From the NCBI GenBank assembly GCA_902800395.1, contig CADCEC010000007.1, forward strand, positions 42,405-106,404: a stretch of DNA of 64,000 nt. Direction: 5' to 3'. Positions 3,012 to 63,706 of this stretch are shown piece after piece. This DNA is from an uncultured Bacteroidota bacterium. GTDB taxonomy: Bacteria > Bacteroidota > Bacteroidia > Bacteroidales > P3. The notes under the pieces are model-generated. The model saw only the letters and a program-made list of their open reading frames with translations. It did not search any database and was not told the origin of the DNA. The first letter of the stretch is position 1; every line of letters starts with the position of its first letter. A program made the translations under genes and the position numbers.

Positions 3012-3045
3012 TATTGATAAGTTGATAAATTGATATGTTGATATG

Positions 3046-4227
3046 TTATCGTAGTTTCAGTGTCGAGAGGGTAAAGATTGCTAACAAAATAGCGATGATA
3101 ATGAACCTCACCACCACCTTCTCTTCCGCCTGGCCCTTCTTCTGGTAGTGGTGATGCAGCGGCGTCATCAGGAAGGGACGCTTCTCCACAGGCACCATCT
3201 CGCTGGGCGGCAGCTTGTGCTTCCGCCGGTAGTATTTGCAGTAGGTGGTCTGGATAATCACCGAGAGGTTCTCCACCACATAGATGCCGCAGAGCACAGG
3301 CAACAGGAGCTCTTTCTTGATAAGCACGGCAAACACCGCAATGATGCCGCCAATGGAGAGCGAGCCCGTGTCACCCATGAAGATATCGGCAGGGTGACCG
3401 TTGAACCACAGGAAACCTATCGTGGCACCGACAAAAGCAGTGCTGAAAATAGCCAGCTCGCCGATATTGGGAAGGTACATGATGTTGAAATAGGTGGCCA
3501 TGATGGCGTTACCGCTCACCCATGCCAGCAGCGCCAAAGCGCCGCCATTCACGGCCGCCACACCCGTGGCGATGCCGTCAATGCCGTCGGTGAGATTCGA
3601 CGCATTGCTCACAGCAGTAACTATCAGGATGATGACCAGCACATAGACCACCCACACCAAATCCTGCGCCCAGTCGCCCATCCACGTCACCAGCCAGGCA
3701 TAGTCGAACTCATTGTTCTTCACAAAAGGTATCGTCGTCGTGGTGCCGCCACTGAGCGCAGGGTGGTACACGATAAGCAGTCCCACCACAAGCGCCAGCA
3801 ATACCTGCCCCAGTATCTTGTACTTGCCCGCCAGACCTTTCTTCCCGCGTGTCTTCTTCAGATAGTCGTCCAGAAAACCCAACAGTCCCAGCCACACCGT
3901 GGTACCCACCATGATGAGCACGTAGATATTGTCGAGTTTGGCGAAGAGCAACGTGGGAATGAGGATAGCAGTAAGGATAAGCAGTCCACCCATGGTGGGG
4001 GTGTTGGCCTTTCGCGCCGCCCCTTCGAGCCCCAGCTCGGTGCGCACTTCGTCCATCATGCCCATCTTATTCTTCATCCAGCGGATGAAAGGCTTGCCCG
4101 CAAGCAGCATAATCAGCAGCGAAGTCACCATGCCCGCCGCTGCCCTGAAAGTGATGCCGATGAAAGCACCCGCCCCAGGGACATGAATTCCCATATCGTT
4201 CAGCCAGTCTAACAAATGATATATCAT
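3046..4227 (-). CDS. mraY: MraY phospho-MurNAc-pentapeptide translocase
   Basis: Inner-membrane enzyme that transfers phospho-MurNAc-pentapeptide from UDP to undecaprenyl phosphate, making lipid I. The 393 residues contain the family motifs in order: LGFLDDYLKKTRGKKGL (DD pair with basic loop), NLTDGIDGIATG (catalytic Asp region), FMGDTGSLS, and the HHHYQKKG triple-histidine loop near the C-terminus. About ten hydrophobic helices alternate with these loops. It is 12 bases downstream of murE and reads into the MurD remnant. The spacer on its downstream side is an 8-base tandem repeat. Confidence 0.96.
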   Translation of the reverse strand: MIYHLLDWLNDMGIHVPGAGAFIGITFRAAAGMVTSLLIMLLAGKPFIRWMKNKMGMMDEVRTELGLEGAARKANTPTMGGLLILTAILIPTLLFAKLDNIYVLIMVGTTVWLGLLGFLDDYLKKTRGKKGLAGKYKILGQVLLALVVGLLIVYHPALSGGTTTTIPFVKNNEFDYAWLVTWMGDWAQDLVWVVYVLVIILIVTAVSNASNLTDGIDGIATGVAAVNGGALALLAWVSGNAIMATYFNIMYLPNIGELAIFSTAFVGATIGFLWFNGHPADIFMGDTGSLSIGGIIAVFAVLIKKELLLPVLCGIYVVENLSVIIQTTYCKYYRRKHKLPPSEMVPVEKRPFLMTPLHHHYQKKGQAEEKVVVRFIIIAILLAIFTLSTLKLR

Positions 4228-4239
4228 AACTCTTACTTC

Positions 4240-5703
4240 TTAGTTCTTACCTCTTAGTTCCTTCTCCGCTTCTTCCACGTCGTCGAAGTGGCTTCTCACA
4301 CCGTTCACCTCCTGATAGGTCTCGTGACCCTTGCCGGCGATAAGGATGATGTCGCCCTCACGGGCCATCATGCAGGCCGTACGAATAGCCTGCCGCCGGT
4401 CGGTGATACGCACCGTGCGGCTCAGTTGCTCCGCCGTGAGGCCAGCCTCCATGTCGTCCAGGATGCTCTCAGGCTGCTCCGTACGGGGATTGTCGCTGGT
4501 CAGCACCAACTTGTCACTCCCCTCGGCGGCAATCTGCGCCATCTCCGGACGCTTCGTCTTGTCGCGGTCACCACCACAACCCACCACCGTAATCAGCTGC
4601 TGTTCCGGTCTCCGGATGGCGGCAATTGTCTCTATCACATTCTGCAGCGCATCCGGCGTATGGGCATAGTCGACAATGGCGGTGATGCCACTCCCACTCA
4701 CACACTGGAACCTCCCAGGGGCAGGCTCCAAGGTGGAGAGTACCCTCAAGGCCTCATCCGGCTCGGCACCGCTCAACACCGCGGCACCATAGATGGCCAG
4801 CAGATTGTAGGCATTGAAGCGACCCACCAGTCTCACCCAAACCTCTCGGCCGCACAGAGAAAGATGCATACCTTCAAATCCCTCCTCTATCACACGGCAG
4901 TGGAAGTCGCCCTTCTGCTGCAATCCATAGGTGTAGACTTTGGCTTCGCAGTTCTGCACCATCACCCTACCGTTCCTGTCGTCGATATTCGTCAGCGCCC
5001 ACGCCCCCTTCGGAAGCGCGTCGAAAAAGCCCTTCTTCGCGGCAATATAGTTCGCCATCGTCTTGTGGAAGTCCAGATGGTCATGAGTAATGTTGCTGAA
5101 GATGCCACCGGCGAATACCACACCGGCGATGCGTTTCTGCACCACAGCATGGGAACTGACCTCCATGAAACAGTAGTCGCAGCCCCTATCCACCATCCTG
5201 CGTAGCAGCTGGTTCAGCTCCAGCGCATCGGGGGTCGTGTGCCCCGTAGGCAGCTCCTCTTCATCCACCTTGTTCACAATGGTGGATACCAATCCCACAT
5301 GATGTCCCAGCTGGCGGAACATCCTGTGCAGCAGGGTGACAGTAGTGGTCTTCCCATTGGTGCCGGTGATACCCACCAGCTTCAGCTGGCTCGACGGGTG
5401 TCCGTAGAAATTGTCCGCCATCAAGCCCAACACCTCGCTGCTGTCCTTCACCACCACAAACGTCACCTTCTCACTTTCCACTCTCCACTTTCCTCTCTCC
5501 ACTTTCTCACACACCACGGCGACAGCACCCTGCTCCACGGCTTTGCCGATGAAGTCGTGCCCGTCAACCTTCGTGCCCCGTTGGGCCACAAAGAGGGTCC
5601 CCTGCGAAACTTTTCGCGAGTCGAACTGGATATCCTTCACCTCCAGCTCCATATCTCCGTCCACCTTGCAGTCAATTCCCTTTATTATATCTTTTAGTTT
5701 CAT
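4240..5703 (-). CDS. murE: MurE UDP-MurNAc-L-Ala-D-Glu:meso-DAP ligase
   Basis: Cytoplasmic ATP-dependent ligase adding the third stem residue. Three Mur domains are present: N-terminal UDP-binding part, central ATPase with GITGTNGKTTT, and C-terminal ligase domain. The motif DNPR (in LTSDNPRTEQP) is the meso-diaminopimelate specificity signature, so the stem peptide should be DAP-type. Length 487 is normal. Residues about 66-80 (EKVERGKWRVESEKV) are encoded by a 7-base tandem repeat (5470-5510) lying in a surface loop between strands, and the last residues ELRGKN come from another repeat array covering the stop codon. Both look like repeat DNA accommodated in an essential gene. Confidence 0.95.
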   Translation of the reverse strand: MKLKDIIKGIDCKVDGDMELEVKDIQFDSRKVSQGTLFVAQRGTKVDGHDFIGKAVEQGAVAVVCEKVERGKWRVESEKVTFVVVKDSSEVLGLMADNFYGHPSSQLKLVGITGTNGKTTTVTLLHRMFRQLGHHVGLVSTIVNKVDEEELPTGHTTPDALELNQLLRRMVDRGCDYCFMEVSSHAVVQKRIAGVVFAGGIFSNITHDHLDFHKTMANYIAAKKGFFDALPKGAWALTNIDDRNGRVMVQNCEAKVYTYGLQQKGDFHCRVIEEGFEGMHLSLCGREVWVRLVGRFNAYNLLAIYGAAVLSGAEPDEALRVLSTLEPAPGRFQCVSGSGITAIVDYAHTPDALQNVIETIAAIRRPEQQLITVVGCGGDRDKTKRPEMAQIAAEGSDKLVLTSDNPRTEQPESILDDMEAGLTAEQLSRTVRITDRRQAIRTACMMAREGDIILIAGKGHETYQEVNGVRSHFDDVEEAEKELRGKN

Positions 5704-5739
5704 CTATAAAATCTATCTAATCTATCGTATCTTTCTAAT

Positions 5740-7977
5740 CTATTTCAAATTCAACACGACCGTCGTCCCTTTCTTCACCGCAGCCCCTGCCTGTGGACTC
5801 TGCGACGAGACTTTCCCGTAACCTGTCAACCGCACCTTCAGCCCCAACGAATGGAGCATCTCGACGGCATCCTTCGCACTCATCCGGCGGCAATTCGGCA
5901 TACGACCCTGCACAGGTTTCTCGGGCAGTATTTTGACATTGGTGCACCGAATCAGGCGGCACGCCTGCTGCAACCCACCCAGATTGCCGCGCAAGAGCAG
6001 GGGTTCCCGCTCAAGGATGGTACTATCCACCGGCGTGAGTGCCGCAAAATCCTCTCCCAAGCGTTCGTCGATAGCCATCACACAGTCGGCAATGGTCCTG
6101 AATACACGTGCCGCCTGGGTACCGAATGCCTCGTGCGGCACCCGCTCCAGCATCACATAGCACGTATAGCGCGGATGCTCGGCAGGGAAGAATCCCGCAA
6201 ACGACGAGTTGTTATAGGCCTGCGTGTGCATTCTCGTCGACTGGTCGTAATAGTCGGCCGTACCTGTCTTTCCGGCGAAATGATACACCTCACTCTTCAT
6301 CCGCTTCGCCGTTCCATGATCCACCACACCCTCGAGCATCTCTCTCACAACCTTTGCGCTCTCTTTGCTGAAAGCATGCTCCCTCATCACCACGGGTTTC
6401 ACCTCCGTGCGTCTCCCATAGCGGTCGTAGATGGCCCGACAGAACAACGGCTTCACCATCCGCCCATCACCAGCCACAGCGTTATAGAAGGTAATTATCT
6501 GCATCGGCGTCACTGCTGTGGAATAACCATAAGTGAGTCGGAGGAAGTCGTCGACAGAGACATTGACATCATTGATACTTGTCTTCGGTTCTGGAGCTTT
6601 CACGTCCAAGTTCAGCTTCTCATAGGGGAACACCTGCCGCATCAGCGCCACCAGGTCGTCGCGCCGATCGCGGTAGTATTTCCATCCCAGCTGGCACATA
6701 CCCACGTTCGACGATTCCTCTATCACCTCCCTCACACTCAAGGAGTCGCGACCATTCTTCTTGTGGCTGTCCTTCACCTCACGGGCATTCGGGAACACTC
6801 CCACACCCACTCGCACTTTCATCGCCGTATCTATCTTTATCTTCGGATCGTTCAGCATGGCCATCAGAGCCACCGTCTTCATTGTCGACCCAGGCTCATA
6901 GCGGCTCGATACAGCCGTATTCCAGTCTCTCAATTCATTATACACCCAGTCCGTTTCGTCGGTCGGAGAAGTCCTCATTTCGGCACGCGCCAGATTCGCA
7001 CATGCCACCACATAACCCGTCTCTACCTCCATCACGATGGCACAACCAGCCTTGCCGCCAAACCTCGCAAGCGTCTGTCTCAACGCGTCCTCCGCCACAT
7101 CCTGTATCCTCGTGTCTATCGTCGATACAATATTCTGACCGTCGATTCTCTTCTGTAGCACCACCTTCTCCACGCTGTCGCCATCCGTTCGGTGTTCCGT
7201 CGAGGAACCCTCGTTGGGCATATCCGCCAGCCAGACACCTTTTGTCAAGCGCCGACTGTTGAAGACTCCATCCCTACCCTTCAAAATCGAATCATACGTG
7301 CCTTCGAGACCCGTAAAATCACCCGTACCTCGGCCATTCTCCAACCCCACCGTATTCGATGCCATCTCGCTATATATATGGGCTCTTACCTCATATTTCA
7401 CACTCCTGCGGTCCACCTCCTTCACCACACACCTCTTCCATCCCGGCAACCGCGCAATCGAAAGCCAAACGGAATAGGGCACATGCTGCTCCACCCTGAA
7501 ACACTGGCGGGGACGCTCCTTCATGCGCTCTTTCTTTACCATCTCCACATAATAATCACTCCCATGTTTGCCCATCGACTCGCTGAGCATCAAAGCCATC
7601 GTGTCCAACGACGCAAACAGCACGCTGTCCGAGACCGCACCCGAGAATTTCTTTTTCCCCTTCGCGTCAGTGTCATATTTCTTACCCAAATCAAGATAAA
7701 GGTCGCACTCCGACACCGTTGTCGCCAGCACCTTCCCATCGCTCGACAAGATATCGCCCCTTTTGGCGGGCTCAACCTGATTAACCCTCGTCTCCCTGCC
7801 GGCTCCCCATTCGCGCCACGATTTACGCACCACACTGCCGTCAGCCATCTTACCCTCCACCTCGGCGGTCTGCGTCTTCACAATACCCACCACAATCGCC
7901 GTACCCATCACCAACGTAAGCAACAGATACAGCACCAACATGCCCCCGGCCATCCGTGTATTTTTATCCTTCTTCAA
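5740..7977 (-). CDS. ftsI: FtsI-type septal penicillin-binding protein with PASTA domain
   Basis: Class B PBP: the division transpeptidase that cross-links strands made by FtsW. A single N-terminal transmembrane helix (about residues 11-33) anchors 745 residues. Catalytic motifs are intact: STMK at about 364-367 (active Ser364), SSN near 422, and KTGT in FAGKTGTADYY near 590. The last ~60 residues (MPNCRRMSAKDAVEMLHSLG onward, ending in VVLNLK) form a PASTA domain, as in SpoVD/FtsI proteins of Bacteroidota. Upstream lies FtsL and downstream murE; both spacers are short tandem repeats. Codon and motif integrity give high confidence. Confidence 0.94.
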   Translation of the reverse strand: MKKDKNTRMAGGMLVLYLLLTLVMGTAIVVGIVKTQTAEVEGKMADGSVVRKSWREWGAGRETRVNQVEPAKRGDILSSDGKVLATTVSECDLYLDLGKKYDTDAKGKKKFSGAVSDSVLFASLDTMALMLSESMGKHGSDYYVEMVKKERMKERPRQCFRVEQHVPYSVWLSIARLPGWKRCVVKEVDRRSVKYEVRAHIYSEMASNTVGLENGRGTGDFTGLEGTYDSILKGRDGVFNSRRLTKGVWLADMPNEGSSTEHRTDGDSVEKVVLQKRIDGQNIVSTIDTRIQDVAEDALRQTLARFGGKAGCAIVMEVETGYVVACANLARAEMRTSPTDETDWVYNELRDWNTAVSSRYEPGSTMKTVALMAMLNDPKIKIDTAMKVRVGVGVFPNAREVKDSHKKNGRDSLSVREVIEESSNVGMCQLGWKYYRDRRDDLVALMRQVFPYEKLNLDVKAPEPKTSINDVNVSVDDFLRLTYGYSTAVTPMQIITFYNAVAGDGRMVKPLFCRAIYDRYGRRTEVKPVVMREHAFSKESAKVVREMLEGVVDHGTAKRMKSEVYHFAGKTGTADYYDQSTRMHTQAYNNSSFAGFFPAEHPRYTCYVMLERVPHEAFGTQAARVFRTIADCVMAIDERLGEDFAALTPVDSTILEREPLLLRGNLGGLQQACRLIRCTNVKILPEKPVQGRMPNCRRMSAKDAVEMLHSLGLKVRLTGYGKVSSQSPQAGAAVKKGTTVVLNLK

Positions 7978-8016
7978 ACCCTTAACTATTATCTATTAAC
8001 TATTATCTATTAACTA

Positions 8017-8613
8017 TCATATCACTTCCGGCGGCGTCGGCATTATCCCTAAACCTTTCTCCCGCTCCAGATCATCCCTGATTTGGGAAATCCGCACCGT
8101 GTTCTGGTTCATCTTCTGCAGTTGTATCTGCTGCTCCCTCAACTCGTTCACCCTCTCCTGCACCACCATCTTCTTTCGGCTCAACGACTCCACCTGATAA
8201 CGGTTGGCCACCACCAAAAGCAGATACACCAGACACAACAGCAGCAACGGAATCTGCTTCAACACCAGTTTGTCTGACAGCACATCACCACCCAGCACCT
8301 TCGCCACTCCCTTCGCCACATGGCCTCCGCGGCCACTAACCTCTGGGGTGTCGTCACCCTCTTCCACCTCGTCAACAACAGGTTGTTCCACTGTTTCGAC
8401 TTCCTCTTCCACCGGAGTTTCCTGCTCAACAACTTTTTTCTCCTCCTTTTCACTCATCTTCTCCGTTTCCACTTCCTCATGCTTACGGCGGCGGTTACCG
8501 ATTCTTCTCTTCTCTCCGCTCTCTAACTTCTGTACCCTGCCAACAATCGCCTCGCGAGCCACATCGCCCTCGAGACCCTCTTCCACAGCCTTTTCCCTGA
8601 ACCTATTCCCCAT
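8017..8613 (-). CDS. ftsL: FtsL-like divisome protein with long acidic N-terminus
   Basis: A bitopic membrane protein in the FtsL slot between rsmH and ftsI. It has one hydrophobic helix (LLLLCLVYLLLVVANRY, about residues 128-145) followed by a short periplasmic coiled coil (VQERVNELREQQIQLQKM), the FtsL architecture that bridges FtsB/FtsQ and FtsI. The preceding ~125 residues are an unusual, highly charged Glu/Lys-rich cytoplasmic extension (EKEEKKVVEQETPVEEEVE), making it 198 residues where FtsL is usually 100-130. FtsL is poorly conserved, so the call rests on topology and position. Confidence 0.8.
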   Translation of the reverse strand: MGNRFREKAVEEGLEGDVAREAIVGRVQKLESGEKRRIGNRRRKHEEVETEKMSEKEEKKVVEQETPVEEEVETVEQPVVDEVEEGDDTPEVSGRGGHVAKGVAKVLGGDVLSDKLVLKQIPLLLLCLVYLLLVVANRYQVESLSRKKMVVQERVNELREQQIQLQKMNQNTVRISQIRDDLEREKGLGIMPTPPEVI

Positions 8614-8665
8614 ATATTATTAATGTATACTTAATTCTTAACTATTAACTCTCAACGATTAACTC

Positions 8666-9607
8666 TTAACTATTAACCACCCTCTCTCCCACCCGTAGTC
8701 TCGCACTACGGGCACGATTGTTTCTCGCCACCTCCTCCTCGCTAGCTTTCACCGCCCCATGGCTCACCATCCGCATCGGCGACAGCACGTTGCCATAAAA
8801 ATCCTTTTCCACCTCACCCTCAAAATTGCCGCTGCGCATGAAATTTTTCACCAGTCGGTCCTCGAGCGAATGGTAACTGATAACCACCAGACGTCCGCCG
8901 GGCTTCAGCACCTCGCTGGCCTGCTGCAACATCTCCTTCAACGCCTCCAACTCACCGTTCACCTCAATCCTCAGCGCCTGAAACAGCATCGCCAGATACT
9001 TGTTCTCCATCCCCCTCGGCAGATGCCGCTGCACCGCCTCCTTCAACTCCCCTGTCGTCTTTATCTCTCTCCGCTCTCCACTTTCCACTTTCCACTTCAC
9101 TATTGCCCTCGCCATCTGCCTCGCATTCGGCAACTCGCCATAGAGTTTCAACAACCGCGCCAACTCCTCCTCCCCGAGACTATTCACCAAGTCGGATGCC
9201 GTCACCTCGCCACGACGGTCCATCCTCAAATCAAGGGCACCGTCGAAACGGGTCGAGAAACCACGCTCAGCCACATCAAATTGATGACTGCTCACACCTA
9301 AGTCCGCCAATATACCATCCACCTGCCGCACTCCATGCAACCGCAGGAAACTCTTCAAATAACGAAAATTTTCATTGATGAAATCAAACTGAGCACCGTT
9401 TTCAACTTTCAACTTTCCACTTTCAACTTTCGCATCCTCATCCTGATCGAACGCCAACAGTCGCCCACCCTCTCCCAATCGTTCCAGAATGGCACGCGAA
9501 TGGCCACCTCCCCCGAAAGTCACGTCGACATACGTACCGTCGGGATGCAATGCGAGGCCATCCAAAGCCTCATCCAACATCACTGGGATATGGTACTCAC
9601 TGCTCAT
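8666..9607 (-). CDS. rsmH: RsmH 16S rRNA (cytosine-1402-N4)-methyltransferase
   Basis: SAM-dependent methyltransferase modifying C1402 of 16S rRNA, conventionally second in dcw clusters. The start MSSEYHIPVMLDEAL at 9607 is chosen because it matches the family N-terminus; the frame could open 15 codons further upstream, but that part lies in mraZ. It overlaps the mraZ end by 11 bases. Motifs: VDVTFGGGGHSRAIL (SAM loop), ILADLGVSSHQFD, GFSTRFDGALDLRMD, and VVISYHSLEDRLVK. Two 7-base repeat arrays are read in frame, giving KVESGKLKVENG (about residues 59-70) and KWKVESGERRE (about 171-181). The C-terminal ERVVNS and stop also lie in a repeat. Confidence 0.95.
   Translation of the reverse strand: MSSEYHIPVMLDEALDGLALHPDGTYVDVTFGGGGHSRAILERLGEGGRLLAFDQDEDAKVESGKLKVENGAQFDFINENFRYLKSFLRLHGVRQVDGILADLGVSSHQFDVAERGFSTRFDGALDLRMDRRGEVTASDLVNSLGEEELARLLKLYGELPNARQMARAIVKWKVESGERREIKTTGELKEAVQRHLPRGMENKYLAMLFQALRIEVNGELEALKEMLQQASEVLKPGGRLVVISYHSLEDRLVKNFMRSGNFEGEVEKDFYGNVLSPMRMVSHGAVKASEEEVARNNRARSARLRVGERVVNS
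9070..9096 (-). repeat. Heptad array inside rsmH (copy 1)
   Basis: CTTTCCA units (plus-strand view), read as KWKVESGERR in RsmH. Confidence 0.85.
9398..9431 (-). repeat. Heptad array inside rsmH (copy 2)
   Basis: Units AACTTTC/CACTTTC, read as KVESGKLKVENG in RsmH. Confidence 0.88.
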
Positions 9608-10058: not shown

Positions 10059-10502
10059 TTTTACCTATTTTTTTCAAGGTGTAAAAATACGAAGAATTTT
10101 CCAATTTCTGCCTTAAAATTCCAAAATTTGTTGTTTTTAACCAATTTTTGTTGTTCATAACCCTAAACGAACAATTCAAAATTTTGTTTCACTTTTCCAC
10201 AAAAAAAATTTTTACCCCTCCTCAATCCTTTCCCACTCTCACTTTCCACTTTTCACTTTCCACTCTCCACCCTTCACCTTCCCATCCCCTCCCCTGTTGA
10301 AAACTTTTTTACCTTGCTGCCGACAGAGCGTTTTTTTTTGTCGAACTTGAAAAAAAATGTTAAAAGTGTGACCCAAAATCGACACCTCGCCGTCTTTATA
10401 TATAGACGAAATATTGTCTAACTATTAACTTTTATCTATTAACTATTGACTTTTATTGTATATTTGTACACAAAACAAGAACCTAAAAAATAACACAAAA
10501 GT
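10059..10502. promoter_or_regulatory. Divergent intergenic region between mraZ and the T9SS-B gene
   Basis: 444 bases with no gene. Minus strand: a near-consensus TATTTTTA at 10082-10089 is the best candidate for the mraZ promoter (7 of 8 positions), in an AT-rich tract. Middle: a 7-base degenerate array at 10226-10275 (units such as ACTTTCC, ACTCTCC). Plus strand: a second 7-base array at 10418-10455 (TAACTAT, TAACTTT), then an exact TATATTTG at 10459-10466 feeding the gene at 10503. Around 10395-10420 there is an imperfect inverted repeat GTCTTTATATATAGAC followed by GACGAAATATTGTC. Confidence 0.6.
10459..10466 (+). promoter_or_regulatory. Bacteroidota -7 element TATATTTG
   Basis: Exact TAnnTTTG match 36 bases before the start codon of the large T9SS protein. 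The upstream TTG at 10446-10448 is only 10 bases away, so the -33 element is not convincing. Confidence 0.6.
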
Positions 10503-47310: not shown

Positions 47311-48534
47311 ATGTCCAAGAAACCCCAAAACGAAGAACACTGCTCTTTCTGCGGCCGTCCTGCCTCACAGGCCGGCATGCTCCTTGCTGGCCTCAACGGC
47401 TACATCTGCCAAGACTGCTCCGCCCAGGCCGAGAAGATCTTCAAAGAGCAGGGCTCCCAAGTTCAAAACTCAAAATTCGAAATCCAGAATTCCGACATCC
47501 CCGTCCCAGCCGACATCAAGGCCTTCCTCGACCAGTATGTCATAGGCCAGGAGGCCGCCAAGCGCGTCCTCTCCGTGGCCGTATACAACCACTACAAACG
47601 TCTGAAATACAATTCTGAGCACGGCGACAAGAACGATGTGGAGATTGAGAAGTCTAACATCATCCTCGTCGGCGAGACCGGCACCGGCAAGACCCTTCTG
47701 GCCCGCACCATCGCGCGCCTCCTCAAGGTGCCTTTCTGCATCGCCGATGCCACCACGCTGACGGAAGCCGGCTATGTAGGCGACGACGTGGAGAACGTCC
47801 TCGTGCGTCTCCTCCAGGCCGCCGACTACAACGTGGAGGCCTGCCAGCGCGGCATCGTCTTCATCGACGAAATCGACAAGATAGCGCGCAAGAGCGAGAA
47901 CACCTCCATCACCCGCGATGTCAGCGGCGAGGGTGTGCAGCAGGCCCTGCTGAAACTCCTCGAGGGTGCCCTCGTGTCCGTCCCCCCCGAAGGGGGCCGC
48001 AAACACCCCGAGCAGAAGCTCATCACCATCGACACCCGCAATATCCTCTTCATCTGCGGCGGCGCCTTCGACGGCATCGAGCGCACCATCGCCTCGCGCC
48101 TCAACAGCAATGTCATCGGCTTCAAGGGCGACGAGACACGCGCCGAACTCGACCGCGACAACATGCTGCAGTATGTCCAGCCTATGGACATCAAGAAGTT
48201 CGGCCTCATCCCCGAACTGGTGGGCCGCTTCCCCGTGCTCACGGCCCTGCAGCCCCTCGACCGCGACGCCCTGCGCCGCATCCTCGTCGAACCTAAGAAC
48301 GCACTCGTCAAGCAGTACCAGGAACTCTTCCGCATGGACGACGTCACCCTCGAGTTCGCCCCCGAGACCCTCGACCTCATCGTCGACCGAGCCGTGAAGT
48401 ACCACCTCGGCGCCCGCGGCCTGCGCTCCATCATGGAGAGCATCATGACCGACCTCATGTTCGACCTCCCGTCACAGGCCAAAGGCTCCACCTTCATCAT
48501 CACCCCCGACATCGCAAAAAAGAAACTGATATGA
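47311..48534 (+). CDS. clpX: ClpX unfoldase subunit of ClpXP
   Basis: AAA+ unfoldase feeding substrates to ClpP. 407 residues: N-terminal zinc-binding domain ([20 protein letters not shown]), AAA+ core with GETGTGKT (Walker A), [11 protein letters not shown] (Walker B), the ELVGRFPV sensor/IGF-adjacent region and [12 protein letters not shown] sensor 2. Residues about 51-62 ([12 protein letters not shown]), in the linker between the zinc domain and the AAA+ core, are encoded by a 7-base repeat array (47463-47492). clpP is not adjacent. The sirtuin gene overlaps its end by 4 bases. Confidence 0.95.
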
Positions 48535-49756: not shown

Positions 49757-49801
49757 AAAGGAGTGAAAGGGAGTGAGAGGGAGTGACGAGGAGTGAAAGG
49801 A
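49757..49801 (+). repeat. 10-base tandem array GGAGTGAAAG
   Basis: About four degenerate units (GGAGTGAAAG, GGAGTGAGAG, GGAGTGACGA, GGAGTGAAAG) between two genes. The reverse complement of the same unit is found inside the next gene (49900-49938) and at 52264-52306. Confidence 0.85.
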
Positions 49802-51649: not shown

Positions 51650-53026
51650 ATGCAGAAGAAACTTCTCTCCGGACTCTTCTGGCTGCTGCTGGCCAACCTC
51701 ATCGTCAAGCCCCTCTGGATTCTTGGCATCGAAGTCGGCGCACAAAACGCCGTGGGCAACAGCGCTTACGGCTTTTACTTCGCCATCTTCAACCTTGCCT
51801 ATATCTTCAATATCCTCCTCGACCTCGGCATCACCAACTTCAACACCCGTAATATCGCCCAGCACCCGCAACTCATCACCAAGCACCTCCCGGGCATCCT
51901 CTCCATCAAACTGCTGCTCTTCGTCCTCTACCTCGTCGTGACCTTCACCGTGGGAGCCCTCATGGGCTACGGCAGTGACGAGTTCCGCCTGCTGGCGTGG
52001 CTCACCGTGGCACAATTCCTCAACTCACTCATCCTCTACCTCCGCAGCAACCTCCAAGGACTCCTGCTCTTCCGCTGGGACAGCCTCTTCTCGGTGATGG
52101 ACCGGGTGTTGATGATTCTCATCTGCGGCTGCCTGTTGTGGGGTCCGAAATTCTCCATTTTCAATTCCCAATTCTCCATTTACCACTTCGTCTACGCTCA
52201 AGTCGCCGCCTACCTCCTCACCGCCCTCACCGCCCTCGTCGTCATCCTCCGCAAAACCCACCTTTCACTCCCTTTCACTCCCTTTCACTCCCTTTCACTC
52301 CCATTTATGCTTGTCATCCTCCGCAAGAGTGCCCCCTTCGCCTTGCTGGTGCTCTTGATGGCCTCCTATAACCGCATCGACCCCATCCTGCTGCGTGCGC
52401 TGGCCTCCGACGCCGACGCCGGCATCTATGCCGGCGCCTTCCGCCTCCTCGACGCCCTCACCATGATATGCTACCTCGTCAGCGTCCCACTCCTCCCCAT
52501 CTTCTCCAAACTCTGTAAAGAACAAAAATCCGCGCCAACAAACTTTCAACTTTCAACTTTCAACTTTCAACTACAAGACGCCTTGCGTCTTGTCTTCTGG
52601 CCCTTGATGATATTTGCTGTGGGAGTTTCTGTGGTTTGCGCGATATGCGCCGAGCCCCTGATGGACCTCCTCTATCCCGGCCGCGGCGCCCTTTATGTGC
52701 CGGCCTTCCGCGTGGTCATCTTCGGCCTCATCCCCATCGCCGTCACCTATATCTTCGGCACTCTCCTCACCGCCGGCGGACACCTGAAGCAGCTCAATAT
52801 CTTCGCCGCCTCCAGCCTGCTCCTCAATATCGTCGTCAACCTCATCCTCATCCCCCGGTTCGGTGCCGCAGGCTCCGCCTGGGCCTCCCTCACCGCCCAG
52901 ACCTTCATGGCCCTGGCCCAGCTCCTGCTGGCCATCCGCCTCTTCCACCTGCCACCTGCCGCTTTCCGTCTCCCGAGACTCTACGAGATAAAGGAACTCG
53001 CTAGCCAGCTTCTTGAAAAAGACTAA
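51650..53026 (+). CDS. Polysaccharide/oligosaccharide flippase (Wzx/MATE-like)
   Basis: 458 residues with about 12-14 predicted membrane helices, starting KKLLSGLFWLLLANLIVKPLWILG and containing DLGITNFNTRNIA and YNRIDPILLRALASDADAGIYAGAFRL, the lipid-linked-sugar flippase pattern. Three repeat arrays are read in frame: FSIFNSQFSIYHF (7-base), LSLPFTPFHSLSLPF (10-base, 52264-52306) and NFQLSTFNFQLQ (7-base, 52548-52576). They sit at helix ends and loops. Substrate unknown. It converges on the M48 gene with a 4-base overlap of stops. Confidence 0.82.
   Translation: MQKKLLSGLFWLLLANLIVKPLWILGIEVGAQNAVGNSAYGFYFAIFNLAYIFNILLDLGITNFNTRNIAQHPQLITKHLPGILSIKLLLFVLYLVVTFTVGALMGYGSDEFRLLAWLTVAQFLNSLILYLRSNLQGLLLFRWDSLFSVMDRVLMILICGCLLWGPKFSIFNSQFSIYHFVYAQVAAYLLTALTALVVILRKTHLSLPFTPFHSLSLPFMLVILRKSAPFALLVLLMASYNRIDPILLRALASDADAGIYAGAFRLLDALTMICYLVSVPLLPIFSKLCKEQKSAPTNFQLSTFNFQLQDALRLVFWPLMIFAVGVSVVCAICAEPLMDLLYPGRGALYVPAFRVVIFGLIPIAVTYIFGTLLTAGGHLKQLNIFAASSLLLNIVVNLILIPRFGAAGSAWASLTAQTFMALAQLLLAIRLFHLPPAAFRLPRLYEIKELASQLLEKD
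52548..52576 (+). repeat. Perfect heptad array in the flippase gene
   Basis: Four consecutive AACTTTC units, read as NFQLSTFNFQLQ in frame. Confidence 0.9.
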
Positions 53027-58085: not shown

Positions 58086-58134
58086 TTCTTTAACCTTTAA
58101 ACGTTAACCTTTAAACTTTAAACTTTAAACTTTA
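58086..58134 (-). repeat. 7-base tandem array between barrel gene and nrdJ
   Basis: Degenerate heptads TAACCTT, TAAACGT, TAACCTT, TAAACTT (three more). It ends at the nrdJ stop codon (58135). Confidence 0.9.
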
Positions 58135-60732
58135 TCACGAGCATTTGCTCCAGCCGCACTGCGGGCAGCTCTTGCAGCCACCGCTGTAGATGAGCTTGCT
58201 GCCACAGTCGGGACAGGTCTCGCCGGTCTCGGTGCCATCTTTGATGTAGCGCTTCAGCGCGCGGGCCACGCCGTTGCTCCACGTGGTGATGCTGTCGGTG
58301 TCGAAGGTGAGCTTGCCGATGAGCTCCACCACATTGGGGATGGGCATACCGTGGCGCAGGATGCCGGAGATGAGCTTGGCGTAGTTCCAGTACTCCTTGC
58401 GGAACATGCGCGAGAGTCCTTCCATGGTGATGTGGTAGCCGTCCTGGTCGAGGAACTGGAAGTCGTAGCGGGCATGCTCCTGGTCTTTCTCCTTCACACG
58501 GATGACCCAGCCTTTCTCCACCCATTTGGGCAGCAGGAAGTTCTCGGCGCGACCGGTGAATATCTCGTAGGGGCGACCTTCATACATGCCGACGACGGCA
58601 ATCCAGTCTTCTTTCTCGTTCTTGAAGCGCACCACCTCGGCCTCGAGTTTCTTGGGACGCTTGGGGGCTTTGTTCTCGCCGAAGCCGTGATTCTCGTCTT
58701 TCTTGCCCTCGTTGGTGCTGACGAGCACACCGGTGCGCGAGCCGTCGCGGTAGATGGTGCAGCCCTTGCAGCCACTCTCCCAGGCGGTCTCGTAAATCTT
58801 GCTGACGATTTCCTTGGTGGTCTCCTTGGGAATGTTGACGGTGACGGAGATGGAGTGGTCCACCCATTTCTGGATGGCGCCCTGCATCTTCACCTTGGCC
58901 ACCCAGTCGATGTCGGCACTCGTGGCGTGGAAGTAGGGGCTCTGCTCGATGACTTTCTGCAGGTCGGCGTCATTCATGTGCATCACCTCGTCGACGTCGT
59001 AGCCGTTGACCTTCGCCCAGTCGAGGAACTTGGGATGGAACACGTTGTACTCTTCGAAGTAGTCGCCGTTCTCGTCCTTGATGATATTATGATTGTTTGA
59101 TTGCTTGATTGCCTGATTGCTTGAGTCATCCGGCCGGTTGATTTTCTTCCTGCGCTTGTAGCTGACGAGGAAGACGGGCTCGATGCCGCTGGTCGTCTGG
59201 GTGCAGATGCTCACGGTGCCCGTGGGGGCGATGGTCAGCAGGGCGATGTTGCGGCGGCCGTGTTTCACCATCTCTTTGTAGAGCTCGGGGTCGGCCTCGC
59301 GTATGCGGCTGATGAGGGGGTTCTTCTCCTCGCGGCGGGCGTCGTAGATGGGGAAGCATCCACGCTCCTTGGCGAGCTGCACACTCGAGGCATAGGCGGC
59401 GCAGCAGAGCGTCTGCTGCACCTTGACGGCGAAGGCCGTGGCCTCCTCCGAGCCGTATTGCAGTCCCAGGGCAGCCAGCATGTCGCCCTCGGCGGTGATG
59501 CCGAAGCCGCTGCGACGGCCCTCCAGGCACTTCATCTTGATGTTCAGCCACAGGTTGTGCTCCACCTGCTTGATTTCGTCACTCTCGGGGTCTGTCTCAA
59601 TCTTCTTCAGTATCTGGTCCACCTTCTCGAGTTCCAGGTCGATGAGGTCGTCCATCAGACGCTGCCCCTTGCCGACATGCTCCTTGAAGAGGTCGAAGTT
59701 GAAGCGCGCCTCCTTGGTGAAGGGTTTTTCGACGTAACTGTAGAGGTTGATGGCCTGCAGACGGCAGCTGTCGTAGGGACACAGCGGTATCTCGCCGCAG
59801 GGGTTGGTGCTCACGGTGCGGTAGCCGAAGTCGGCATAGCAGTCGGGCACGCTCTCGCGCAGGATGGTGTCCCAGTAGAGCACGCCGGGCTCGGCACTGC
59901 TCCAGGCATTGGCGATAATCTTGTTCCACAGCGCGCGGGCGTCAATCTCCTTGGTATAGATGGGATTGGGCGAGTCGATGGGGTACTGCTGCACAAAGGG
60001 CTTGCCGCTCTTCACACACTCCATGAACTCATCGGTAATCTTCACACTCACGTTGGCACCGGTAATCTTGCCCTGCTCGAGCTTGGCGTCGATGAACTGC
60101 TCGGCATCGGGATGCTTGATGCTGATACTCAGCATCAGGGCGCCTCGGCGCCCCCCCTGCGCCACCTCGCGGGTGGTGTTGGAGTAGCGCACCATGAAAG
60201 GTACGATGCCTGTGGAGGTCAAGGCGCTGTTTTTCACGGGACTGCCACCCGGGCGGATATGGCTCAGGTCGTGGCCTACGCCACCGCGGCGTTTCATCAG
60301 CTGCACCTGCTCCTGGTCAATCTTCATGATGCCGCCATAGCTGTCGCTGTTGCCTTGGTTGCCGATGACGAAGCAGTTGCTCAGGCTCACCACCTGGAAG
60401 CCGTTGCCGATGCCACTCATCGGGCTGCCCTGCGGGACGATATACTTGAAGTCCTTGAGCAACTGGTAGATCTCCTCCTCGCTCATGGGATTCTGGTATT
60501 TCTCCTCGATGCGGGCATACTCCGCGGCCAGGCGGCGGTGCATCATGTCGGGATTCAGCTCGTAAACCTTATTCTCGTCGCGCAAGGCATATTTGTTCAT
60601 CCACACATTGGCGGCCAACTCGTCGCCATGGAAATAATCCACCGACGACTTCATAATCTCCTCGGGGGTGTATTGCTTATATTCTTTAGGGGCCTTCACG
60701 GGCTCAACTGCTGAAAACAAATCGCCTTGCAT
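58135..60732 (-). CDS. nrdJ: Class II (adenosylcobalamin-dependent) ribonucleotide reductase
   Basis: Makes deoxyribonucleotides using B12 instead of a diiron or glycyl radical. Start MQGDLFSAVEPVKAPKEY at 60732 (865 residues). Motifs: SGIGNGFQVVSLSNCFVI with catalytic Cys, VGHDLSHIRPGGSPVKNS, VSTNPCGEIPLCPYDSC (active-site Asn-Cys-Glu), TGTVSICTQTTSGIEP, and a C-terminal CPDCGSKLIYSGGCKSCPQCG zinc-ribbon with redox Cys. An 8-base repeat (59086-59122) inserts SSNQAIKQSNNH in a loop before the EENGDYF block. The coding strand is C-rich. Confidence 0.94.
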   Translation of the reverse strand: MQGDLFSAVEPVKAPKEYKQYTPEEIMKSSVDYFHGDELAANVWMNKYALRDENKVYELNPDMMHRRLAAEYARIEEKYQNPMSEEEIYQLLKDFKYIVPQGSPMSGIGNGFQVVSLSNCFVIGNQGNSDSYGGIMKIDQEQVQLMKRRGGVGHDLSHIRPGGSPVKNSALTSTGIVPFMVRYSNTTREVAQGGRRGALMLSISIKHPDAEQFIDAKLEQGKITGANVSVKITDEFMECVKSGKPFVQQYPIDSPNPIYTKEIDARALWNKIIANAWSSAEPGVLYWDTILRESVPDCYADFGYRTVSTNPCGEIPLCPYDSCRLQAINLYSYVEKPFTKEARFNFDLFKEHVGKGQRLMDDLIDLELEKVDQILKKIETDPESDEIKQVEHNLWLNIKMKCLEGRRSGFGITAEGDMLAALGLQYGSEEATAFAVKVQQTLCCAAYASSVQLAKERGCFPIYDARREEKNPLISRIREADPELYKEMVKHGRRNIALLTIAPTGTVSICTQTTSGIEPVFLVSYKRRKKINRPDDSSNQAIKQSNNHNIIKDENGDYFEEYNVFHPKFLDWAKVNGYDVDEVMHMNDADLQKVIEQSPYFHATSADIDWVAKVKMQGAIQKWVDHSISVTVNIPKETTKEIVSKIYETAWESGCKGCTIYRDGSRTGVLVSTNEGKKDENHGFGENKAPKRPKKLEAEVVRFKNEKEDWIAVVGMYEGRPYEIFTGRAENFLLPKWVEKGWVIRVKEKDQEHARYDFQFLDQDGYHITMEGLSRMFRKEYWNYAKLISGILRHGMPIPNVVELIGKLTFDTDSITTWSNGVARALKRYIKDGTETGETCPDCGSKLIYSGGCKSCPQCGWSKCS

Positions 60733-60798
60733 AGTTCGTGTCTTTATTTTTGTCCTGCAAAAATAGACAGAAAAACGCAAACCGCAGCGACGAGTTAT

Positions 60799-60827: not shown

Positions 60828-61259
60828 CTTTGCCAGTCAAACGTTTGCTCGGTTGAAAAGTGGGTTTGATAACGGTTAAAGGTTAAAGGTTTGCTCCAGC
60901 CCCTTACACATCCTCTGCTTGCGTCGCAGGCCGTGCCCCAAGGGGCAGGCAGAAAGGTTAAAGAAAAACTGCCGCAACACGTTGACGACAATTCGCCTGC
61001 GTAGCCTCGTTAACCGTTAAACGTTAAACGTTAACCTTTACAGAATAACCTTCACCGGCGAGAGGCTGACAACGGGGCGCTTGGCAAAATGCAAAGATAC
61101 AACATATACCCGAAATTTTCAAAAAAATTCATCATAATCCAAAAAAAAGCGTACCTGCACCCCGGTTTCTCCCTCGTACTCTACGCCGGCGACAAGATTA
61201 ACCGAGACAGAAACTGAGGAGCGGGAAAACAAAAAAAAGTTTTTTCAAAAAAATTTTTG

Positions 61260-61267: not shown

Positions 61268-61288
61268 CAACGTAAAATACATTCATTT

Positions 61289-61585: not shown

Positions 61586-61896
61586 AGGTTCATACTTCTG
61601 ATATAGCACTACAGCGAATCCAAGAAACGGCTGGTTACATCCAACGGGAGTTTGGCAAGCAGTATCGAGTCGATTTCATGCAAAAGGTACGCGAGGTGAA
61701 ACGACTGCTTCGCCACAACCCCTACCTTGGCCCCATCGAGCCGCTGCTGGCCGACAGGGCGACGACCTACCGTAGCATTGTGGTGGCCAGACAAAACAAG
61801 ATGGTCTACCGCATCACGGACGACCGTATCGAGATTGTCGACTTTTGGGATGTGCGGAGAGAGCCGGAAAAACAGGCCGGCAATATTAAACGATGA
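61582..61896 (+). CDS. RelE/ParE superfamily toxin
   Basis: 104 residues. The body has the RelE/ParE helix-sheet pattern: N-terminal helix DIALQRIQETAGYIQREFGKQ, linker RLLRHNPYLGPIEP, Arg-containing strand TYRSIVVARQNKMVYRI and final IEIVDFWDVRRE (family: V-V--VWD-RR-P). Basic residues on the sheet fit an mRNA-cleaving or gyrase-poisoning toxin; which one is not clear. It overlaps both neighbours by 4 bases. Confidence 0.8.
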   Translation: MKVHTSDIALQRIQETAGYIQREFGKQYRVDFMQKVREVKRLLRHNPYLGPIEPLLADRATTYRSIVVARQNKMVYRITDDRIEIVDFWDVRREPEKQAGNIKR

Positions 61897-63683
61897 AGAA
61901 AGTAGTTGTAAACCTATATATTATATGTCTTTTAGCCGTTGCCGCCGTCGCCTGCTCGGGCCCTGAGAACGGCAACGCCCCCGTCGGCAACGACACTGTC
62001 TACACCGAAAAGGCAATACTGAATATCTACGGCAGCGACCCCCAGCGGGCGCTCACGATGATAGACTCCGGCCTCCTGGTGGGCACCCTCGACGAGGAGC
62101 AAGCCACGCTGCTGCGTGCCAGAGTCTATTGCTATTCGCCCGATGAATGGCCCCTCGATACTGTAAACCAGATGCTTGAAGGACTGCTGGAGAGCGATTT
62201 CGCTCAAAAGGACCCCGACAACCGTCAGGCTGTCCTCGACCTGCTTGTCTATGTCTCGCGCCGCCGCGGCGACAACGTCGCCTACCTGCGCTGGGCTACC
62301 GAGAAGGCCGACTTCTGCCACCAACGGGGTGAGGAGACCGAAGCCCTTCGCACCGAGGCCGAGATCGGCGCCATCCTCACCAGCATGGGGGAGGTGGAGA
62401 AGGGGCTCTCCAAGCTCGACGGCGTGATAGGCGCACTCGACAAGCAGCGCCACTTCAACGAGATGGACGCCTGCATCATCGCCCTCAAACGCAGGATTTA
62501 TGTCCTCTGCGACATCGACCGTTACGACGAGGTGATCCCCCTCGCCAAGCGTATTGTCGAGAAAATCAACGACTATCGCGAGCATCCCGATGACTATGAC
62601 GACGGTTCCTTCCGCCTGCCTTCCAACGAAGATAAACGTTTGGACTACTGCAACTTCTACACCTCCCAGGCCTACGGTTTCCTGATGATTGCCTATGGCG
62701 ACCTCGGCTCCCTCGACTCGTCAAGGTACTATCTATCCCTCTTCGAGCGCAGCGACTATTCCAAGACACTGGTAGGCAAGATGATGCTTGCCCCCGCCTA
62801 CCTCCGGCTCGGCCAATACAACAAGCTGAAGCCCCTCTACGACGAGATAGAGGCCTGCATGGGAGCCGACACCCTCAACAGCGACTACGCCCTCATCCTC
62901 CGTGGACGCGCCATCATGGCCGAGGCCGCAGGCAACTACTACGCCGCCAACAACTACGGGAAGCGTTACAACAACCTGAAGGAAACCCTTAACAAACAGC
63001 TCCTTGAGAGCCGCGCCCACGAGTATGCCGCTCGCTACCACCTGCAAGAGGAGAAGATGAAAGTGGAAAGTGAAAAGCGGAAAGTGGAAAGCGGAAGGAG
63101 GATGATTATAGGACTCACCATCTTTGCCCTGATAGCCATCGGACTCATCATACAGCTGCTCTTCCTGCGCAAGTCTATCGACCGCAAGAACAAGGTGTTG
63201 GCTGAACAGCTGGCCAACATCACCCGTAGGGGCGTACCCCCGTGTACGCCCGAAAACGACGCGTCGGGCGTACACGGGGGTACGCCCCTACCAGAACCGT
63301 CAGACATTAACGCATTCACACCGTCAGACATTAACGCGTTGTCTGACGAACAGCTCTTCGACCACCTGGCGGAGACCATCCGCGCCGAGAAGCTCTTCTT
63401 AGACAACAACTTCGGACGCGATTTCATCATGGCCCGTTTCCACCTCTCCGAGCGCCAAGTCGGTGCCGCCTTCTCCAAGGGCAGCCCGTATGCCTCCATC
63501 GCCGACTTCTCCCGCGAGCTGCGTCTCGAGTACGCCTGCCAGCTGCTCACCGAGTGCCCCGACATGAGTATCAGCGAGATAGCCGCCACCTGCGGCTACG
63601 GAAGCCCCGTCGCCTTCAACCGCGCTTTCAAAGCCAAATACGAAATCACCCCCTCCTACTACCGCGAACAGGTGAATGGTTAA
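61893..63683 (+). CDS. TPR sensor with transmembrane helix and AraC-type DNA-binding domain
   Basis: 596 residues: N-terminal lipoprotein-like signal (LLAVAAVAC, Cys21), periplasmic TPR-like helical region (about 30-385), membrane helix (about 409-426, IIGLTIFALIAIGLIIQLLFL), cytoplasmic linker, and C-terminal AraC/XylS HTH (LSERQVGAAFSKGS, MSISEIAATCGYGSPVAFNRAFKAKYEITPSYYR). Thus an external signal could gate transcription directly. Three repeat insertions are in the coding sequence: heptads KMKVESEKRKVESG before the helix, the 66-base palindrome RRGVPPCTPENDASGVHGGT after it, and a 24-base direct repeat (SDINAFTPSDINALSD). The start overlaps the toxin stop by 4 bases. Confidence 0.82.
   Translation: MKKVVVNLYIICLLAVAAVACSGPENGNAPVGNDTVYTEKAILNIYGSDPQRALTMIDSGLLVGTLDEEQATLLRARVYCYSPDEWPLDTVNQMLEGLLESDFAQKDPDNRQAVLDLLVYVSRRRGDNVAYLRWATEKADFCHQRGEETEALRTEAEIGAILTSMGEVEKGLSKLDGVIGALDKQRHFNEMDACIIALKRRIYVLCDIDRYDEVIPLAKRIVEKINDYREHPDDYDDGSFRLPSNEDKRLDYCNFYTSQAYGFLMIAYGDLGSLDSSRYYLSLFERSDYSKTLVGKMMLAPAYLRLGQYNKLKPLYDEIEACMGADTLNSDYALILRGRAIMAEAAGNYYAANNYGKRYNNLKETLNKQLLESRAHEYAARYHLQEEKMKVESEKRKVESGRRMIIGLTIFALIAIGLIIQLLFLRKSIDRKNKVLAEQLANITRRGVPPCTPENDASGVHGGTPLPEPSDINAFTPSDINALSDEQLFDHLAETIRAEKLFLDNNFGRDFIMARFHLSERQVGAAFSKGSPYASIADFSRELRLEYACQLLTECPDMSISEIAATCGYGSPVAFNRAFKAKYEITPSYYREQVNG
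63226..63291 (+). repeat. 66-base in-frame palindromic element
   Basis: Left arm (63226-63252, begins GTAGGGGCGTACC) and right arm (63265-63291, ends GGTACGCCCCTAC) are perfect 27-base inverted copies around a 12-base centre. 66 bases is 22 codons with no stop in frame. A single-arm copy is in the gene at 39149. Confidence 0.92.
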
Positions 63684-63706
63684 CGGTTAACGGTTAACGG
63701 TTAACG
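63678..63706 (+). repeat. GGTTAAC heptad array after the AraC-type gene
   Basis: Four units GGTTAAC/GGTTAACG directly after the stop region of the regulator gene. Confidence 0.9.

What the first reader, a model, noticed from the sequence alone, without database searches (positions are those of the whole stretch)
3014..63706. Genome-seeded degenerate heptamer repeat arrays (mostly 7-base period) across gene junctions and inside genes
Reading the window base by base shows more than thirty short tandem arrays, each with its own unit but the great majority with a strict 7-base period (4229, 5470, 7983, 8637, 9070, 9398, 10226, 10418, 18329, 47463, 51348, 52150, 52548, 58086, 60876, 61010, 63059, 63678). 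Others have periods of 8 (3014, 50628, 59086), 9 (5707, 39901, 41432, 63908), 10 (49757, 49900, 52264) or 11 (34717). Arrays in spacers are rich in TAA/TTA, arrays in genes are stop-free (CTTTC/AAGTG types). Degenerate heptamer repeats (STRR) are known from filamentous cyanobacteria such as Calothrix/Anabaena; I do not know of a description in Bacteroidales. Their different sequences with a shared period argue for a generating process, not a copied element.
Basis: partly seen in the sequence, partly recalled or inferred. Interest (0 to 1): 0.85.

Follow-up and report, generated by a model that had tools for sequence, protein, structure and literature searches.

The report
Genome-wide dialects of 7-base repeats
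This bacterium's genome is sprinkled, between and inside its genes, with short repeats mostly 7 letters long, and related species favour different repeat words, which suggests that the words are copied around the genome by a process not yet identified.

Summary
The arrays are real. TRF recovers 28 of 29 listed positions. A stricter scan keeps 21 arrays in the window, 18 at listed positions, against 1 in 20 Markov and 0 in 20 local shuffles. In 542 kb of the window's genome (G000) there are 210 arrays, 115 of period 7; a close relative (G031) has 274 in 610 kb.

Units are not independent: 31 of 115 heptamer arrays in G000 share CTTTCCA, while G031 prefers CACCTTT, CAATTTT and ACCCACT. Nearby arrays share units more often, and inverted partners exceed controls. 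Of 52 arrays co-located between the two species, 11 keep the unit. Co-location beats a uniform null, but in spacers not an independence test (18 against 14.5 expected; in genes 19 against 7.2).

Best explanation (inferred): STRR-like arrays whose units are copied from array to array by template switching and slippage, surviving in spacers and tolerant protein loops. Reverse transcriptase and SbcC do not track the arrays. Heptamer repeats are known in cyanobacteria, Beggiatoaceae, Xanthomonas and some Bacteroidetes; multi-period species dialects look new within my searches.

The parts
3014..3047 (.). 8-base array TTGATAAG by the end of the MraY-signature gene 3046-4227 (-)
   Evidence: no array above threshold at the orthologous G031 site, which reads as a degenerate 8-base pattern
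4231..4260 (.). 7/14-base array TCTTACC/TCTTAGT at the junction of genes 3046-4227 (-) and 4240-5703 (-), before the start of the former
   Evidence: below threshold 18; genes by Pfam
5472..5506 (.). 7/14-base array CACTTTC/CACTCTC inside the Mur ligase gene 4240-5703 (-)
5702..5743 (.). 9/18-base array ATCTATCTA at the Mur ligase / penicillin-binding transpeptidase junction
   Evidence: below threshold 18
7982..8017 (.). 7/14-base array TTAACTATTATCTA at the transpeptidase / FtsL_2 junction; the G031 spacer is 25 bp shorter, without array
8631..8677 (.). 7/14-base array TTAACTC/TTAACTA at the FtsL_2 / MraW junction; 48 bp here against 18 in G031
9067..9097 (.). 7-base array CCACTTT inside the MraW methylase gene 8666-9652 (-)
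9400..9431 (.). 7-base array TTTCAAC inside the MraW methylase gene 8666-9652 (-)
10228..10282 (.). 7-base array CTTTCCA / CACTCTC; co-located with a G031 array of CAATTTT type
10419..10455 (.). 7-base array TAACTAT before gene 10503-14540
   Evidence: below threshold 18
18329..18355 (.). 7-base array CTTTCCA in ORF 16883-19213 (+), between sigma-54 and M23 peptidase domains; G031 has CTCTCAC/CTTTCAT units there
34711..34790 (.). 11-base array CAGTATTTGTT followed by its inverted copy (22 of 22 paired); the orthologous G031 site carries a hairpin of another 11-base unit
41430..41495 (.). 9/12-base array CTAGTAGAA in a spacer, absent in G031
47462..47492 (.). weak 7-base array TTCAAAA near codon 50 of the ClpX-like gene 47311-48534 (name recalled)
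   Evidence: score 34; below threshold 18
49757..49800 (.). 10-base array GGAGTGAAAG; inverted partner of 49894-49938; conserved in G031
49894..49938 (.). 10-base array CTTTCACTCC preceded by CATTTGTC (GACAAATG on the other strand); conserved in G031
50616..50654 (.). 8-base array GCAATCAG inside gene 49835-51646 (+), no array in G031
51348..51380 (.). 7/14-base array AAACTCTTAACTCT inside gene 49835-51646 (+); G031 has an 8-base array AGCAATCA there
52149..52183 (.). degenerate 7-base array inside the Polysacc_synt gene; same length but (AATTTAC)n in G031 and (AATTTTC)n in G002
   Evidence: not in TRF
52261..52305 (.). 10-base array CCTTTCACTC inside the Polysacc_synt gene; (CACCTTT)n in G002, none in G031
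52541..52572 (.). 7-base array AACTTTC inside the Polysacc_synt gene 51650-53026 (+); five unit types among the 6 of 21 orthologues examined that have an array here
58088..58134 (.). 7-base array CTTTAAA directly after the ribonucleotide reductase gene 58135-60840 (-)
59081..59124 (.). 8-base array TGATTGCT inside the ribonucleotide reductase gene (nearly the reverse complement of the unit at 50616); no array in G031
60870..60891 (.). 7-base array TAAAGGT before the ribonucleotide reductase gene, opposite in orientation to 61008-61040
   Evidence: below threshold 18
61008..61040 (.). 7-base array CGTTAAA
63059..63102 (.). 7-base array GAAAGTG inside the AraC-type HTH gene 61893-63683 (+)
63671..63706 (.). 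7-base array GGTTAAC across the end of gene 61893-63683
63907..63931 (.). 9-base array GACAACAGA
   Evidence: below threshold 18

Best explanation
The arrays are a dispersed, lineage-specific family of degenerate short tandem repeats of the STRR kind. Shown: period 7 dominates, with smaller classes at 8-11; the two genomes studied in depth use small, different vocabularies of units; nearby arrays share units more often; inverted partners and hairpins occur; and where both species have an array at one place the unit usually differs. Inferred mechanism: arrays start and lengthen by slippage, and units spread and are overwritten by short replication template switches from array to array. Direct switches homogenise neighbours, fold-back switches make inverted partners and hairpins with mirrored arms, and rarer long-range switches produce the genome-wide dialect. 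Selection only filters: arrays survive in spacers and in tolerant loops, linkers and signal peptides, where they must be stop-free and keep the frame. No dedicated function is needed.
For: Not chance. Dialect. Local copying: same-unit fraction of same-period pairs in G000 is 0.55 under 500 bp, 0.36 at 0.5-2 kb and 0.19 beyond 50 kb; in G031 0.35, 0.29 and 0.15. Fold-back copies: 20 of 210 and 36 of 274 arrays have an inverted partner within 350 bp downstream, against 6 and 2 at random places. Hairpins with mirrored arms and different units at one orthologous site. Unit replacement: of 52 co-located arrays 11 keep the unit, 5 differ at one base, 21 at two or more, 15 have another period. More genes with arrays in both species than independence gives, 19 against 7.2 of 295 (gene length not controlled). 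Same loop, different units across the genus. Frame kept in 13 of 13 in-gene co-located period-7 pairs. Template switching can make and mend inverted repeats (PMC8794818, abstract read).
Against: No event was seen directly; the compared species are about 80% identical, so rates and single steps are unknown. Co-location (52 against 4.7 by circular shift) is mostly explained in spacers by both species placing arrays there: at 159 shared junctions both have one in 18, 14.5 expected, p=0.19. Of four equal-length pairs with different units, the register is kept at one, tied at two and lost at one. At least four of the 20 inverted partners in G000 involve the nearly self-complementary unit AAACTTT and are same-strand neighbours (listing). 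A genome-wide dialect needs long-range copying over about 30 bp, short for RecA (recalled). ACAAATG lies in the downstream flank of 12 of 193 G000 arrays (0.46 expected), often after four copies, which bare slippage does not predict.
Confidence: 0.4

Rival explanations
1. Independent local birth: each array is seeded from local sequence by slippage, and the same permissive sites are hit again in each species (closest to the first reader's view).
For: 95 of 147 G000 arrays and 103 of 155 G031 arrays are not co-located. In spacers, sharing is no more than independence (18 against 14.5, p=0.19). The same loops recur as sites. At one equal-length site the register is lost.
Against: Random local seeds do not give a genome-wide dialect that differs between close relatives, nor the excess of inverted partners.
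Confidence: 0.25
2. A trans-acting writer or small inserted element: a template (RNA or single-stranded DNA) or an element with defined ends adds arrays of the current unit, as telomerase adds repeats at breaks.
For: Genome-wide dialects. Some arrays end at a fixed tag: 12 of 26 GACAAATG in G000 and 17 of 46 in G031 follow an array, against 0-2 of 2-37 occurrences for each of five control words, mostly with three or four copies. CTGACGC in 11 of 375 G031 downstream flanks, 1.1 expected.
Against: No reverse transcriptase PF00078 match in array-rich G002, G041 and G007 (G007 79% complete). No common flank for most arrays. Several periods and units per genome would need several templates.
Confidence: 0.2
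3. Recognition sequences under drive or selection, such as DNA uptake sequences, recombination hot spots or sites for a regulator, with species dialects.
For: Species dialects are known for DNA uptake sequences (PMC3630211, search listing only). Purine-sense bias at co-directional junctions in G000 (38 to 14, p=0.001). Isolated dialect words slightly enriched (CACTTTC 74 in G000 against 43 per Mb in G031).
Against: That bias is absent in G031 (31 to 31). Enrichment is mainly in arrays (42 against 6 in-array words). Several unrelated units and periods coexist. Junction types follow background (61 of 96 co-directional against 298 of 445 in G000).
Confidence: 0.1

Closest known systems
STRR heptamer repeats of filamentous cyanobacteria (Calothrix, Anabaena/Nostoc)
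   Same: Degenerate tandem heptamers dispersed through a genome (largely recalled; three heptanucleotides in Calothrix are mentioned in the introduction of PMC4692102, read)
   Different: Here arrays are also common inside protein genes, periods 8-11 coexist, and close relatives use different units
TAACTGA direct repeats of Beggiatoaceae, Cyanobacteria and five Bacteroidetes (PMC4679880; abstract and section 10 read)
   Same: Heptamer arrays, strain-specific, indels mostly in steps of 7 in Cyanothece; other heptamers mixed in for some Bacteroidetes
   Different: One unit was studied, and in the BOGUAY genome most sets lie just before start codons; here many units and no junction preference
GGGNATC heptamers of Xanthomonas and Nostoc (PMC4692102; abstract and introduction read)
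   Same: Genome-wide heptamers over-represented in non-coding DNA, species-typical unit; a preference for four units, as in the GACAAATG-tagged subset here
   Different: Those are G-rich quadruplex formers; 11 of 12 and 10 of 12 of the commonest heptamer classes here lack G on one strand (read off)
DNA uptake sequence dialects of Neisseriaceae (PMC3630211; title and start of abstract in search listing)
   Same: Species dialects of a short word spread over the genome (further likeness recalled)
   Different: Single 10-12 base words (recalled), not tandem arrays of several periods
Phase-variable simple sequence repeats (contingency loci)
   Same: Short tandem repeats inside and before genes
   Different: Copies here are degenerate, and all 13 in-gene co-located period-7 pairs differ by a multiple of 3 bases, which speaks against on/off switching

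Membership tests
Heptamer STRR-type repeats | Tandem arrays of a 7-base unit, more than chance | tested here: met
Heptamer STRR-type repeats | Dispersed at many loci with preferred units per genome | tested here: met
Heptamer STRR-type repeats | Mainly intergenic | tested here: not met
   period-7 arrays genic/edge/intergenic: G000 51/25/39, G031 83/18/36 (greedy ORFs overstate genic). Spacers are still enriched: 73 of 265 and 95 of 303 junctions of 15-600 bp hold an array
Heptamer STRR-type repeats | Unit equal to TAACTGA or GGGNATC | tested here: not met
   neither is among the 12 commonest classes listed for each genome; rarer classes were not listed, and cyanobacterial STRR units were not tested
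Phase-variable contingency repeats | Near-perfect copies, unit-length frameshifts between relatives | tested here: not met
   degenerate copies; 13 of 13 in-gene co-located period-7 pairs differ by a multiple of 3; same-strain variation not testable
DNA uptake sequences | Over-represented word also as isolated copies | tested here: inconclusive
   isolated words per Mb, G000/G031: CACTTTC 74/43, CACCTTT 52/88; in arrays 42/6 and 6/31
DNA uptake sequences | Preferentially bound or taken up in transformation | not testable with these tools
   needs experiment
Reverse-transcriptase-made repeats (telomerase-like) | Reverse transcriptase in every array-rich genome | tested here: not met
   PF00078 in 7 of 12 genomes; no match in array-rich G002, G041, G007 (G007 79% complete)
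Consequence of losing SbcCD hairpin nuclease | Array-rich genomes lack SbcC | tested here: not met
   SbcC in 28 of 59 genus genomes; counts of four heptamer words median 1.5 with and 4.0 without, Mann-Whitney p=0.19; G050, G006 and G038 (word counts) and G041 (11 arrays in 20 kb) have SbcC
Known structured RNA | Match to an Rfam family in the window | tested here: not met
   0 matches at gathering score

The most novel reading that the evidence does not exclude
The genome carries a self-propagating vocabulary: a small set of 7-11 base words written into, and rewritten within, hundreds of sites genome-wide, loops of essential enzymes included, so that when a lineage's vocabulary changes, old arrays are re-typed in place to the new word. 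That would be a process that moves sequence between unlinked short arrays without any mobile gene, or with a still unknown trans-acting template.
Probability: 0.25. Interest if true: 0.85.

Novelty: new variant of a known kind. Interest (0 to 1): 0.58.

Why it matters
Heptamer repeats have been noticed in bacteria without an explanation for the number 7 or for their spread. A genus with many species whose members use different dialects and several periods makes the question testable, because close relatives show what became of each array. If units are really copied between unlinked 30-base arrays, this is a source of concerted, multi-base change in proteins (for example Mur ligase, MraW and, by recalled resemblance, uridine phosphorylase and agmatine deiminase) that ordinary substitution models leave out.

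Tried and rejected
Reverse transcriptase as generator: no match in several array-rich genomes. Loss of SbcC as cause: a 6 to 6 split in 12 genomes did not hold in 59. Arrays as rearrangement breakpoints: 5 of 15 clean breakpoints hold an array against 48 of 193 ordinary junctions, no clear difference. Promoters or terminators: junction types follow background, Rfam gives nothing. Phase coherence of differences (p<0.05 at 6 of 7 equal-length sites) was computed and dropped, because any two period-7 arrays differ phase-coherently; the register test is better and mixed. The shared copy-specific base in the uridine-phosphorylase-like array is one case. Assembly error: unlikely, since arrays are short and recur in other assemblies (inference). 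Literature: searches on repeats, Nostoc introns (46), uptake dialects (61) and template switching (62); none listed a report of such dialects in Bacteroidales, but most subscription papers are not held. Mrazek 2007 could not be read.
Full report
What is there. The window is contig 7, bases 42405-106404, of a 2.41-Mb, 21-contig genome. Its ClpX-like protein is closest (95%) to an uncultured Bacteroidetes genome, RUG12171 (L001; a rumen genome by its name, recalled), then to two Bacteroidales genomes at 70 and 72%. In a plain lag scan at threshold 18, 21 arrays remain, twelve of them period 7 or 14; 20 order-4 Markov shuffles gave one in all and 20 local triplet shuffles none. Several lie in a cell-wall and division gene cluster: at junctions of the MraY-signature, Mur ligase, transpeptidase, FtsL_2 and MraW genes and inside the Mur ligase and MraW genes.

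Not local to the window. 541,869 bases of the own genome (G000: contigs 7 and 1 whole, contig 2 in part, window included) hold 210 arrays of score 15 or more: 115 of period 7, 22 of 9, 19 of 8, 14 of 11, 9 of 10, the rest of other periods. 610,251 bases of RUG12171 (G031) hold 274, 137 of period 7. 73 of 265 and 95 of 303 gene junctions of 15-600 bp carry one (ORFs by a simple greedy rule). In 20-kb samples of 20 further genus genomes, 19 had at least one array and 10 had arrays of period 7, 14 or 21; one shuffle of each sample gave none. Of 80 ClpX loci from the scan (L001 included), 15 have period-7 arrays at threshold 17; over their 1.43 Mb the commonest periods are 7 (27), 11 (11), 8 (9) and 22 (9). 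The feature is patchy and wider than this genus.

Dialects. Merging rotations and strands, G000's heptamers are led by AAAGTGG (31 of 115; CTTTCCA on the other strand), G031's by AAAGGTG (22), AAAATTG (17), ACCCACT (14) and AAGAATT (10) of 137. AAAGTGG occurs at most twice in the G031 sample, since it is not among its twelve listed classes. Pairs of heptamer arrays share a unit within one mismatch in 0.193 (G000) and 0.145 (G031) of cases, against 0.057 and 0.047 with letters shuffled within units; the ratio is larger for periods 8-11. An exact 17-base word of the CACTTTC dialect occurs 102 times in G000, 26 in G012, 21 in G038, 19 in G049, and in 19 of 59 genus genomes in all; the mirror word, the CACCTTT dialect, occurs 88 times in G049, 26 in G002 and 5 in G000. 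The CAATTTT word peaks in G050 (120), G002 (70), G006 (64) and G001 (63); G000 has 11. G041 has 11 heptamer arrays in 20 kb, nine of them in three units; all four arrays of the G042 sample share one 11-base unit.

Local and inverted copies. In G000, pairs with the same unit are 22 of 40 under 500 bp, 20 of 55 at 0.5-2 kb and 308 of 1616 beyond 50 kb on one contig; G031 shows the same fall. An inverted partner lies within 350 bp downstream of 20 of 210 arrays in G000 and 36 of 274 in G031, against 6 and 2 at random places; at least four of the 20 involve the nearly self-complementary AAACTTT unit and are same-strand neighbours. Eleven-base arrays make hairpins: window 34711-34790 pairs 22 of 22 bases, and the orthologous G031 site pairs 43 of 48 with a different unit that recurs elsewhere in G031. 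Folding z-scores are -8.0 and -12.8.

Sites and units between species. Over 33 colinear blocks (380.7 kb) G000 has 147 and G031 155 arrays; 52 are co-located, 4.7 expected after circular shifts. Of the 52, 11 keep the unit, 5 differ at one base, 13 at two, 8 at three or more, and 15 have another period. That null ignores the shared preference for spacers. Tested by junction, both species have an array at 18 of 159, 14.5 expected, p=0.19; tested by gene, 19 of 295, 7.2 expected, p=3e-6, gene length not controlled. So spacer arrays may come and go independently, while some in-gene sites seem to be kept or preferred. In the loop of the polysaccharide-export-like protein (window 52541), 6 of 21 orthologues examined (20 of the 28 matched, plus G031) carry an array, of five kinds: AACTTTC (G000), TTCATCA (G002, G031), ACCTTTC (G035), CCACTCT (G007) and GGGAGTGAAA (G001). 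Some in-gene replacements keep exact length: at A_C1 60036 and 288781 CACTTTC-type arrays face CACCTTT-type arrays without a gap, and all 13 in-gene co-located period-7 pairs differ by a multiple of 3. In a uridine-phosphorylase-like gene the copies read CTTTCCA, CTTTCCG, CTTTCCA, CTTTCCA against CTGACCA, CTGACCG, CTGGCCT, CTGACCA. Of four equal-length different-unit pairs tested for register, it is kept at one, tied at two and lost at one.

Function was sought and not found. Junction types follow the background (co-directional: G000 61 of 96 against 298 of 445; G031 72 of 113 against 333 of 514). A purine-sense bias at co-directional junctions exists in G000 (38 to 14) but not in G031 (31 to 31); inside genes G031 is pyrimidine-sense biased (92 to 35), G000 not (39 to 33). 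Breakpoints are not clearly enriched. Rfam gives no match in the window. Reverse transcriptase and SbcC do not track the arrays.

A tagged subset. GACAAATG follows an array in 12 of its 26 occurrences in G000 and 17 of 46 in G031, against 0-2 for each of five control words. The array has four copies in 9 of 12 and 9 of 17; 3 and 4 of these ATGs open 60 codons. ACAAATG is the top downstream word in G000 (12 of 193 flanks, 0.46 expected) and third in G031 (13 of 375, 0.81 expected); CTGACGC (11 of 375, 1.1 expected) marks another G031 group. This hints at elements with defined ends and is the strongest point against pure slippage.

Judgement. The arrays are of the heptamer STRR kind, known from cyanobacteria, Beggiatoaceae, Xanthomonas and some Bacteroidetes (PMC4679880, abstract and section 10 read; PMC4692102, abstract and introduction read). 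Not described, within the searches made, is a genus whose sampled members differ in multi-period vocabularies and whose shared sites hold different words. Template switching can make and maintain inverted repeats (PMC8794818, abstract read); its extension to long-range re-typing of dispersed arrays is my inference, and independent birth at tolerant sites remains a serious rival.

Noticed in passing
window 49894-49938; G000 and G031 contigs: Arrays of 8-11 bases, often with four copies, end at GACAAATG; some are followed by a short loop, TATTGTC and the inverted array. Looks like a structured repeat element; a few of the ATGs open a reading frame.
   Followed up: partly
window 16883-19213 (+): One 776-aa ORF holds sigma-54 domains and a Peptidase_M23 domain, with a heptamer array in a signal-peptide-like stretch between them; G031 has a 776-aa ORF with the same arrangement around the array (the G031 domains were not scanned).
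   Followed up: partly
G031 array flanks: CTGACGC is enriched next to purine-rich arrays (11 of 375 flanks, 1.1 expected), a possible second end tag.
   Followed up: no
59 genus genomes: SbcC (TIGR00618, E up to 1e-12) was found in 28 of 59 genomes of one genus and in 14 of 34 of the more complete ones, so this hairpin nuclease seems patchy.
   Followed up: partly
G000 against G031, 33 colinear blocks: Several inversions and moves of about 2-15 kb between two genomes about 80% identical; breakpoints hold arrays in 5 of 15 cases against 48 of 193 ordinary junctions.
   Followed up: yes
arrays inside genes: Some in-gene arrays form signal-peptide-like or membrane-like segments, or give peptides such as VESGKWK inside enzymes (uridine-phosphorylase-like and agmatine-deiminase-like; names recalled from the sequence).
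   Followed up: partly
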